This document shows positions 39,146 to 45,074 of a DNA stretch of 64,000 nt, piece by piece (positions within the stretch are counted from its first letter, which is position 1; every line of letters starts with the position of its first letter). The translations under genes and the position numbers were made by a program. The stretch lies in the NCBI RefSeq assembly GCF_007970665.1, contig NZ_CP042430.1:3472001-3536000 (forward strand), in the 5' to 3' direction. Origin of the DNA: Baekduia soli. GTDB lineage: Bacteria; Actinomycetota; Thermoleophilia; Solirubrobacterales; Solirubrobacteraceae. The notes beneath the pieces were generated by a model. It saw only the letters and a program-made list of their open reading frames with translations. It had not been told where the DNA came from and did not search any database.

Positions 39146-40447
<1,302 letters not shown>

Positions 40448-40614: not shown

Positions 40615-42264
40615 GTGTCGAGAACCGCCGCCCCCGACCCGGACGCCGCCCGCCGTCCCGCCGAACGCGACCTGCTGCGCCGGCTGGCCACGGGCACGGC
40701 CGGCGTGGTCGGCGATGCGTTCTGCCGCGCGCTGGTCCGGCACCTGGCCGGGGCCTTCGGCGCCGAGCTGGCCTTCGTCGCCGAGCACCTCCCCGAGCCC
40801 GCCGGGCGCGTCCGCGTGCTCGCCTCGTGGCAGACGGGCGTGCCGCTGCCCGAGGGCTATGAGTTCGACCTCAGCGACGCGATGCCGTGCTCCGTCGTCG
40901 CCCACGACGGACTGCTCGTGCTGCCCGAGGGCACGTGCGCGCGCTACCCGGGCGACCACGTCGTCTCGACCTACGGGCTGGACGCCTACCTCGGCGTCGC
41001 GCTCGACGGCGCCGACGGCGCCCGCGTCGGCTACCTGGCGGTCATGGCCTCCCGGCCGCTGGAGCCCGACGACGACGAGATCGCGGTCCTGCGGATCTTC
41101 GCGGCGCGGGCCGCCGCCGAGGTCGAGCGCCGCCGCCACCAGGGCGCGCTGCGCGCGCGGGACGCCGAGGTCGCCTCGGCGCGCGCCCGCGTCCTGGACG
41201 CCGCCGACGGGGAGCGCCAGCGCATCGGGCGCGACCTGCACGACGGCGCCCAGCAGCGCATCGTCGCCCTGACGCACCTCATCGGCCTCGCCCGGCGCAA
41301 GCTCGGCGACGACGTGCCCGCCGACGCGGCCGCGCTGCTGGACCGCGCCCACGAGGAGGCGCGCCTGGCCACCGACGAGCTGCGCGAGCTGGCCCGCGGC
41401 CTGCACCCGGCCGGTCTGACCGAGAAGGGGCTCGTGGCCGCGCTGGAGGCGCTGGCCGCCCGCGCGCCGCTGCCGCTGCGGCTCGGCCGCATGCCCGAGC
41501 GCCGCCTGCCCGCGCCCCTGGAGCTCACGGCGTTCTACCTGGCCTCGGAGGGCCTGACCAACGCGGTGAAGTACGCGGGCGCCACCGAGGTGCGCATCGA
41601 CGTCCTCCAGCGCCCCGACGCCGCGGTGATCGAGTTCGCCGACGACGGCGCCGGAGGCGCCGACCCGGGCGCGGGCAGCGGCCTGAGCGGCCTGCGCGAC
41701 CGCGTCGCCGCGCTCGGGGGCCGCCTCGAGGTCCACAGCCCGCCGGGCGACGGCACCCGGCTGGTGGCGACGATCCCGCTCGCGCCGTTCCGCTCCGCGC
41801 ACGAGCCGTTCCTGGAGTTCGGCCACGCTCAGGACGGCGGGCGCGGAGAGCGCAACATCCAGGCCGTGATCGCCGGGCGCAAGAGCCTGTCGGTCACCCT
41901 GGCCCGCGAGTGGGAGCTCGAGGGCGGGATCCCGCGCATCGGCCAGCGCCTGCCCGTCATGGACCACGAGGGGCGCCGCCGCGCGACCGTCGAGGTCCAG
42001 CGCGTCGCGTCGCTGCCGTTCGCCGACATCGACGAGACCGTGATCGAGCCCGCCACGCTGGACGCGACGTCGCTGTCGGAGTGGGCCGCCCGCCAGCAGC
42101 GCTTCTACGACGAGTGCCGCGACGAGCTGGCGCTGCTGTTCGGCGAGCCCGGCTGGCGGTTCTGCGCCGAGGAGCCGATGGTCCTCACCTGGTACCGGCC
42201 CGTCGCCGGCGACGACGACGGCGGGCCCGAGGCTCAGACCGGGCCTTCCTCGCTCTCGGCGTAG
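40615..42264 (+). CDS. GAF-histidine kinase (HisKA_3) fused to a C-terminal ASCH domain
   Basis: 549 residues, GTG start, soluble. Residues ~30-175 are a GAF-like sensor. The HisKA_3 dimerisation helix reads QRIGRDLHDGAQQRIVALTH with the phospho-acceptor His209, as in NarL/DesK-type kinases. The HATPase has Asn316 in GLTNAVKYAG and the G box ADDGAGGADPGAGSGLSGLR. The catalytic domain ends near 390. Residues ~400-535 are an ASCH (PUA-like) domain: AVIAGRKSLSVTLAREWELE with Lys423, PRIGQRLPVMDHEGRRRATV, then LSEWAARQQRFYDECRDELA and EEPMVLTWYRPV. No response regulator is adjacent. The ASCH part is in the same frame without any break, so the fusion is real in this sequence. Confidence 0.85.
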   Translation: MSRTAAPDPDAARRPAERDLLRRLATGTAGVVGDAFCRALVRHLAGAFGAELAFVAEHLPEPAGRVRVLASWQTGVPLPEGYEFDLSDAMPCSVVAHDGLLVLPEGTCARYPGDHVVSTYGLDAYLGVALDGADGARVGYLAVMASRPLEPDDDEIAVLRIFAARAAAEVERRRHQGALRARDAEVASARARVLDAADGERQRIGRDLHDGAQQRIVALTHLIGLARRKLGDDVPADAAALLDRAHEEARLATDELRELARGLHPAGLTEKGLVAALEALAARAPLPLRLGRMPERRLPAPLELTAFYLASEGLTNAVKYAGATEVRIDVLQRPDAAVIEFADDGAGGADPGAGSGLSGLRDRVAALGGRLEVHSPPGDGTRLVATIPLAPFRSAHEPFLEFGHAQDGGRGERNIQAVIAGRKSLSVTLAREWELEGGIPRIGQRLPVMDHEGRRRATVEVQRVASLPFADIDETVIEPATLDATSLSEWAARQQRFYDECRDELALLFGEPGWRFCAEEPMVLTWYRPVAGDDDGGPEAQTGPSSLSA

Positions 42265-42569
42265 GTCTCCTCGACGACCTCGATGTACTGGAACAGCCGC
42301 CTGAGGCTGCCCGGCTCGGAGACCTTGAACACCGCCCGGCGGTCGGCCTCCGAGCGGGTGACGATGAAGACGCGCTCGCCCTCGATCGGCGCCCGGAGCA
42401 GGCGCTTGGCGTGGTCGCCCGCGTGGGAGAACCCCGCGTAGATCGGCGAGGTCTGCACGGTGCCCGAGGGGTCGAGCGCGGCGACGACATGGGCCGGGTT
42501 GCCCGCCGTCTCGAGGTCCAACCGGACGCCGTTGATGATCCGCATGAACTCGGCGTCGGAGTCGTTCAT
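42234..42569 (-). CDS. Hypothetical protein
   Basis: 111 residues from ATG (MNDSDAEFMRIINGVRLDLE). It is alpha/beta with THR-like strands: HVVAALDPSGTVQTSPIYAG, LLRAPIEGERVFIVTRSEAD and RLFQYIEVVEETYAE. Not recognised. The last 31 bp overlap the end of the kinase-ASCH gene on the opposite strand. The start has TACGAT 6 nt ahead, which supports it over the longer frame. Confidence 0.65.
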   Translation of the reverse strand: MNDSDAEFMRIINGVRLDLETAGNPAHVVAALDPSGTVQTSPIYAGFSHAGDHAKRLLRAPIEGERVFIVTRSEADRRAVFKVSEPGSLRRLFQYIEVVEETYAESEEGPV

Positions 42570-42575
42570 GAACGC

Positions 42576-42581
42576 ATCGTA
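42576..42581 (-). promoter_or_regulatory. -10 element TACGAT
   Basis: Ends 6 nt before the ATG at 42569. Confidence 0.5.
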
Positions 42582-42675
42582 CGCCGACCGGGGACCGCGA
42601 CGCCCTCGGTGCGCGTGGGTCGTCGCGCGCAGGAGGGAGGGCGTCGCGCCCCTCGGATCAGACCGCGGCCTGCGG

Positions 42676-42930
42676 TCAGCTCGCCGCGCGGCGGCGCGGG
42701 CCACCGCGCTTGACGGGCGCCCACTTGGTGCCCTTGGCCAGCGTCTCGACGGCCTCGAGCTTGACGCTGCGGGCGGCGCCGAGGTCCTTGCGCAGACGCG
42801 TGAGCGCGAGGCGCACGAGGTCGCTCTGGGTCAGCTTGGTCTTGCCCGACGCCGTCTCCAGCCAGGAGATCTCATCGGCACCGATGAGGTATGAGCGCTG
42901 CTTGAGCCCACTGGGTCGATCTGTTGCCAC
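42676..42930 (-). CDS. Small basic protein, possible ribbon-helix-helix regulator
   Basis: 84 residues. RSYLIGADEISWLETASGKT followed by KLTQSDLVRLALTRLRKDLG has the strand-helix-turn-helix spacing of CopG/Arc-type repressors. The C-terminus is basic (KWAPVKRGGPRRRAAS). A Shine-Dalgarno (AAGGAGG at 42939-42945) precedes the ATG. It is divergent from the DsbA-like gene, whose promoter holds paired palindromes, making it a candidate to bind them. The family call is tentative. Confidence 0.6.
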   Translation of the reverse strand: MATDRPSGLKQRSYLIGADEISWLETASGKTKLTQSDLVRLALTRLRKDLGAARSVKLEAVETLAKGTKWAPVKRGGPRRRAAS

Positions 42931-44681: not shown

Positions 44682-45074
44682 TCAGCCCGCGGCGCGCGCG
44701 CCCGGCGGCAGGAGCCGGCGCACCTGGAAGACCATCGCGTCGGGGTCCGGGTCCTTGATGATGAACGCGTCGGCGCCCGCATGGCGCGCGAGCGTGCGGT
44801 CGCGCTCGTCGTCCAGGCCCGTGACCATGGCGATGCGCACGCCGGCCAGCTCGGTCTCGGCCCGCAGGTGGCGGCACGTGGTGATCCCGCTCTGGCCGGG
44901 CATCCGCCAGTCGAGCAGGATGAGGTCCGGCCGCTCGCGCAGCGCGACGGTCACGGCGCTGCGGCCGTCGGCCGCCTCGACGACCCGGAAGCGCGGGATC
45001 TCGAGCGCGGCACGGACGTACGCGCGGAAGCCCGCATCATCGTCGACCACGAGCACGGTCGCCGCCTCAGCCAT
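44682..45074 (-). CDS. Single-domain response regulator (CheY-like)
   Basis: 130 residues, receiver only. The acidic pair is VLVVDDDAGFRAYV, the phospho-acceptor Asp is in RPDLILLDWRMPGQSG, Thr is in RIAMVTGLDDERD and Lys in ADAFIIKDPDPDAM. With no output domain it must work by protein contact. It lies 2.4 kb from the orphan kinase-ASCH gene, so it is a candidate partner, but that is only proximity. Confidence 0.93.
   Translation of the reverse strand: MAEAATVLVVDDDAGFRAYVRAALEIPRFRVVEAADGRSAVTVALRERPDLILLDWRMPGQSGITTCRHLRAETELAGVRIAMVTGLDDERDRTLARHAGADAFIIKDPDPDAMVFQVRRLLPPGARAAG

What the first reader, a model, noticed from the sequence alone, without database searches (positions are those of the whole stretch)
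40615..42264. Histidine kinase with an ASCH domain fused to its C-terminus
One uninterrupted frame joins GAF, HisKA_3 (His209) and HATPase (Asn316) to a PUA-like ASCH domain (about residues 400-535, with the GRKS lysine at 423). ASCH domains are predicted RNA-binding domains, and the E. coli member YqfB is an N4-acetylcytidine amidohydrolase. I know of no described kinase with this output. It could couple a signal directly to RNA binding or nucleoside chemistry, without an adjacent response regulator.
Basis: partly seen in the sequence, partly recalled or inferred. Interest (0 to 1): 0.82.

Follow-up and report, generated by a model that had tools for sequence, protein, structure and literature searches.

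The report
Histidine kinase carrying a remodelled ASCH domain
A soil actinobacterium and some of its relatives carry a signalling kinase joined to a small nucleic-acid/nucleoside-type domain whose usual active-site residues have been lost but whose new pattern is strongly conserved, so the domain more likely regulates the kinase than acts as an enzyme.

Summary
Window 40615-42264 (+) is one open frame of 549 aa joining GAF, HisKA_3 (His209), HATPase (Asn316) and an ASCH domain (residues ~399-532). Pfam ASCH scores 24.5 bits (cut-off 21.2); an AlphaFold2 model of that part (pLDDT 92) matches solved ASCH proteins EF3133 and 3s9x (Z 12) and YqfB (Z 11). The fusion is not an artefact: the same domain order recurs in three genera of the order (10 of 232 genomes held), and the kinase halves form one clade (100/99). 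One nested Solirubrobacter-type genome lost the ASCH at the syntenic locus. 'RNA output or N4-acetylcytidine chemistry' is not supported: 47 related stand-alone ASCH domains keep Lys (47/47), Thr (45/47), EG(E) and His (46/46); the 11 fused ones have Lys or Arg, Ser/Ala/Gly/Thr, no G481, no E482 and no His. Instead they share new invariant motifs (LAREW.LEGG, EPM) under purifying selection, and the domain is acidic. Best explanation: an orphan cytosolic kinase whose C-terminal ASCH barrel became a non-catalytic binding module that tunes the kinase or docks a partner. New variant of a known kind; ligand and partner unknown.

The parts
40615..42264 (+). CDS, 549 aa, GTG start: GAF-HisKA_3-HATPase-ASCH kinase
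   Evidence: GTG start conserved as VSTA/VSRTA in close relatives
40717..41124 (+). GAF domain (residues 35-170), presumed input domain
   Evidence: Pfam GAF 3.2e-6 on the N-terminus alone; fold in model
41212..41415 (+). HisKA_3 dimerisation/phosphoacceptor domain (200-267), His209 at 41239-41241
   Evidence: Pfam 5.3e-13
41539..41784 (+). HATPase_c (309-390), N-box Asn316 at 41560-41562
   Evidence: Pfam 3.6e-9
41785..41808 (+). short linker (391-398), flexible in the model (pLDDT <50 at 394-396)
41809..42210 (+). ASCH domain (399-532), EF3133-like fold with remodelled pocket; Lys423 at 41881-41883
42211..42261 (+). disordered C-terminal tail (533-549)
   Evidence: pLDDT <50 at 535-549

Best explanation
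This is a cytosolic orphan HisKA_3 kinase. The GAF domain senses a first signal; a long helix carries it to the His209/ATPase core, which phosphorylates an unlinked response regulator. The C-terminal ASCH barrel, taken from an EF3133-type stand-alone protein in one fusion event, has lost the conserved pocket residues and works as a non-catalytic binding module, tethered by a short flexible linker, that tunes the kinase (second input) or helps choose its partner. Shown: the ORF, the domains, the fold (predicted), conservation of the fusion, its single origin, loss of pocket residues, purifying selection. Inferred: kinase activity, the partner regulator, the regulatory role and the ligand.
For: Domain profiles and kinase motifs. 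ASCH fold. Fusion in three genera, with fused kinases as one clade 100/99. In one nested Solirubrobacter-type genome (G017) the same-locus kinase lacks the ASCH with no remnant, so the kinase can apparently be kept without it: an accessory, not the sole output. Pocket residues invariant or nearly so in 47 stand-alone relatives are lost in the fused clade, while 34 columns are invariant in the 11 fused domains, most of them not so in the stand-alone ones. ASCH dN/dS is below 1 in every pair, 0.05-0.58, comparable to the kinase parts. A related GAF-HisKA_3 kinase without ASCH lies outside the fused clade (G006 paralogue).
Against: No ligand, partner or activity was tested. In Ca. Solirubrobacter pratensis the copy lost 48 residues of the helical dimerisation region but kept the ASCH, which would fit a role of the ASCH apart from the kinase. 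ASCH absence in G017 is one genome. The linker is flexible in the model, so no cis interface with the ATPase domain is predicted with confidence.
Confidence: 0.5

Rival explanations
1. The ASCH is mainly a docking or assembly surface (for a response regulator, another kinase subunit or a ribonucleoprotein) and binds no small ligand.
For: Fused-specific invariant stretches around LAREW.LEGG, R502, GEP.W and EPM are long and not at the classical pocket positions; no adjacent regulator, so partner choice must be made in trans.
Against: No partner gene is conserved across all fused loci; the neighbourhood is conserved only within a genus.
Confidence: 0.25
2. One reading: the ASCH is the output and couples the signal directly to RNA binding or nucleoside (ac4C) chemistry.
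For: ASCH fold shared with YqfB (Z 11) and with the ZmASCH ribonuclease (Z 7.7); window copy keeps Lys423 and Ser426, and YqfB Thr24Ser stays active (PMC6972931); a DEAD-box RNA helicase is the divergent neighbour.
Against: Lys/Thr/EG(E)/His pattern broken in the fused clade; no Arg at the YqfB Arg26 position; acidic domain; helicase not found next to the fused genes outside the genus; ASCH lost cleanly in G017.
Confidence: 0.15
3. The ASCH is a decaying passenger with no role after an accidental fusion.
For: Loss of ancestral pocket residues; loss of the domain in G017; frameshifted second copy in the window's genome.
Against: Purifying selection and 34 invariant columns across three genera; identity of the ASCH is comparable to that of GAF and HATPase.
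Confidence: 0.07
4. The junction is an assembly artefact.
For: None found.
Against: Same in-frame fusion in independent genomes at about 50-74% identity.
Confidence: 0.01

Closest known systems
EF3133-like (DUF984) stand-alone ASCH proteins, PDB 1t62 and 3s9x
   Same: Same fold, Z 12 over 127-134 residues; best sequence match to a solved protein (E 0.005)
   Different: They keep the Lys, EGEG and WxxxH pattern (alignment); the fused domain does not, and they are single-domain proteins without an assigned function
E. coli YqfB ac4C amidohydrolase
   Same: ASCH fold, Z 11; Lys and a hydroxyl residue at the Lys21 and Thr24 positions in the window copy
   Different: Arg26 and the Glu74-region acid are not there in the window copy; Lys and Ser/Thr not conserved among orthologues
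HisKA_3 (NarX/LiaS/UhpB-type) sensor kinases
   Same: Phosphoacceptor and ATPase domains, His209 and Asn316
   Different: C-terminal ASCH after the ATPase domain; no paired NarL-type regulator next door

Membership tests
HisKA_3 histidine kinases (Pfam PF07730) | HisKA_3 profile over its cut-off with conserved His in the H-box | tested here: met
   49.8 bits against 24; His209 in RDLHDGAQQ
HisKA_3 histidine kinases (Pfam PF07730) | HATPase_c with N- and G-boxes | tested here: met
   37.5 bits against 26.4; Asn316, DDGAGG, GSGLSGLRDR
HisKA_3 histidine kinases (Pfam PF07730) | Autophosphorylation and transfer to a response regulator | not testable with these tools
   needs protein; no adjacent regulator
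ASCH superfamily (Pfam PF04266) | Profile match over the cut-off | tested here: met
   24.5 bits against 21.2 for residues 395-549; 21.1 in the whole protein, so a weak match
ASCH superfamily (Pfam PF04266) | PUA-like barrel of ASCH type | tested here: met
   model pLDDT 92; best PDB matches are ASCH proteins, Foldseek E down to 1.5e-9
ASCH superfamily (Pfam PF04266) | Octapeptide GxKxx[ETS]xR (as stated in PMC9599836) | tested here: inconclusive
   GRKSLSVT in the window: G, K and S fit, the final Arg does not; Lys is Arg in 4 of 11 fused domains. Stand-alone EF3133-like relatives, accepted ASCH proteins, also lack the final Arg, so this is not decisive for the superfamily
YqfB-type ac4C amidohydrolase | Lys21, Thr24, Arg26, Glu74 (PMC6972931) | tested here: not met
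   window has Lys423, Ser426, Thr428; Ala480/Leu482 at the aligned acidic motif; not conserved in orthologues
YqfB-type ac4C amidohydrolase | Hydrolysis of ac4C | not testable with these tools
   needs an assay
ZmASCH-type ribonuclease | Positively charged RNA cleft and residues Tyr47, Lys53, Ser128 (PMC5615036) | tested here: inconclusive
   fold match Z 7.7 at 7% identity; domain net charge -7; no residue-level mapping of the cleft was made

The most novel reading that the evidence does not exclude
A two-input kinase in which a former nucleoside/RNA-type ASCH pocket became a receptor, so that a nucleotide-like or RNA-linked signal is read by the C-terminal domain and fed into a classical phosphorelay (or, reversed, the kinase switches an ASCH binding activity).
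Probability: 0.3. Interest if true: 0.7.

Novelty: new variant of a known kind. Interest (0 to 1): 0.42.

Why it matters
Sensor kinases are usually regulated by domains in front of the catalytic core; here a domain from a nucleic-acid/nucleoside-binding superfamily sits behind the ATPase domain and is conserved across three genera with its ancestral pocket remodelled. It offers a natural series (kinase never fused, fused, ASCH lost again, dimerisation helices lost) in which the role of an accessory domain can be tested, and a lead on what ASCH domains do when they are not enzymes.

Tried and rejected
An out-of-frame slice of the C-terminus (window:41790-42264) gave meaningless results and was replaced by window:41797-42264. 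NCBIfam gave only sub-threshold kinase families for the whole protein, PADLOC nothing, PHROGs nothing for the ASCH part. A conserved partner gene was sought in the fused and related loci: a DEAD-box helicase, a DsbA-like and a PNPOx gene recur within the genus only, a Lrp/AsnC regulator in Solirubrobacter only, so no partner is proposed. A search for a paper on the recent YqfB-ac4C structure found none. The genome-contig scan used only two peptide patterns and returned five loci, so it is not a census; 396 Actinomycetota genomes sampled with the ASCH profile gave fused-type scores only in the window's genus; other phyla were not searched.

Full report
What was checked. The frame at 40615-42264 (+) is open over 549 codons with a GTG start, and the start is conserved as VS(R)TA in close relatives. 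Pfam finds HisKA_3 (5.3e-13), HATPase_c (3.6e-9), GAF (3.2e-6 on the N-terminus alone) and ASCH. In the whole protein the ASCH match is 21.1 bits, a hair under the 21.2 cut-off; for residues 395-549 alone it is 24.5 bits. My first C-terminal slice was out of frame and its results are disregarded (second protein).

Fold. AlphaFold2 on the ASCH region with 32 aligned sequences gives pLDDT 92.3, pTM 0.84. Foldseek's best PDB matches are EF3133 (1t62, E 1.5e-9), the Lactobacillus crispatus ASCH 3s9x and E. coli YqfB (VIA-align Z 12.0, 12.1 and 11.1), with the ZmASCH ribonuclease lower (Z 7.7). The full-length model (pLDDT 86.7, pTM 0.56) shows GAF, a long signalling helix (153-233), the kinase core, a linker of low confidence (394-396) and the ASCH. 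The relative placing of ASCH and kinase is therefore unknown.

Is the fusion real and how old? Full-length relatives with the same order occur in the window's genus (74 and 71% identity in two genomes, further ones in others, some cut by contig ends), in another family of the order (54%) and in Solirubrobacter soli DSM 22325 and Ca. S. pratensis. In 232 genomes of the order 10 carry a fused-type ASCH, in 3 of 54 genera; in 396 genomes sampled over the phylum, fused-type scores were seen only in the window's genus, the rest being ASCH domains with far lower scores. A tree of the kinase halves puts all 11 fused proteins and one ASCH-less kinase (G017) in one clade (100/99), with G017 beside S. 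soli (95/92) and the ASCH-less G006 paralogue outside. G017 is at the syntenic place, between a Lrp/AsnC gene and the same other neighbour, and its kinase stops right after the ATPase domain with no ASCH remnant. The simplest history is one fusion, one later loss of the ASCH, and a second copy in the window's genome.

What the ASCH kept and lost. Across 47 stand-alone relatives from the same class and phylum the Lys is 47/47, the Thr three residues on 45/47, the EG pair 47/47, the next Glu 43/47 and the His of WRxxH 46/46. In the 11 fused domains these are Lys 7/Arg 4; Ser 5, Ala 4, Thr 1, Gly 1; no Gly481; no Glu482; no His494. The solved EF3133 and 3s9x sequences show the ancestral pattern in the alignments. 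YqfB needs Lys21, Thr24, Arg26 and Glu74 (PMC6972931); the window copy has Lys and Ser but Thr at the Arg26 position, and Ala/Leu at the acidic motif. At the same time the fused clade has 34 invariant columns, among them LAREW.LEGG, R.LP, R502, P512, W514 and PM at 521-522, and ASCH dN/dS by a Nei-Gojobori count is 0.05-0.58 in all pairs tested. The domain is acidic, net -7 here and -5 to -11 in the clade. So it is not decaying, and it is unlikely to be a YqfB-type enzyme or a general RNA binder.

How it most likely works. The kinase half has every motif of an active HisKA_3 kinase. The GAF domain is the likely first input. Because the ASCH can be lost while the kinase stays (G017), the ASCH is more likely an accessory than the only output; because it has a new, strongly conserved pattern with the old pocket residues gone, it probably binds something other than the ancestral ligand, or a protein. 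One observation points the other way: the S. pratensis copy lost 48 residues of the dimerisation helices and kept the ASCH.

Surroundings. No response regulator is adjacent. A receiver-only protein lies at 44682-45074 (-), a DEAD-box helicase is the divergent neighbour (39146-40447, -), and a small convergent protein of no Pfam family follows (42234-42704, -). None is conserved across all fused loci. Novelty: no paper held in the library was found to describe a kinase-ASCH fusion, but the library lacks most subscription journals, and domain databases were not consulted for architectures.

Noticed in passing
L065:3424-4868 (-), own genome C1:3785423-3786867: Second kinase-ASCH copy whose kinase and ASCH lie in different frames because of what looks like a one-base deletion in the last part of the ATPase domain; the ASCH part is otherwise intact. 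Real pseudogene or sequencing error not decided.
   Followed up: partly
L034:4984-6432 (Ca. Solirubrobacter pratensis): Fused kinase lacking 48 residues of the helical dimerisation region while GAF, HATPase and ASCH are kept.
   Followed up: partly
window 44682-45074 (-): Receiver-only response regulator without output domain, 2.4 kb from the finding.
   Followed up: no
window 42234-42704 (-): Small protein without Pfam match, convergent with and slightly overlapping the kinase gene, conserved (about 40-50% identity) at the same place within the genus.
   Followed up: partly
L001:1501-1815, own genome C1:595985-596299 (+): Separate stand-alone ASCH protein with an intact GRKTATIR motif (YqfB-like), the only other Pfam ASCH match in the genome.
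   Followed up: no
L107:2540-3121 (read on the minus strand): Closest stand-alone relative of the fused ASCH (86-87 bits); shares the FGYDGDGGLGDRL start and keeps the EGEG and His pattern; a candidate for the ancestral form.
   Followed up: partly
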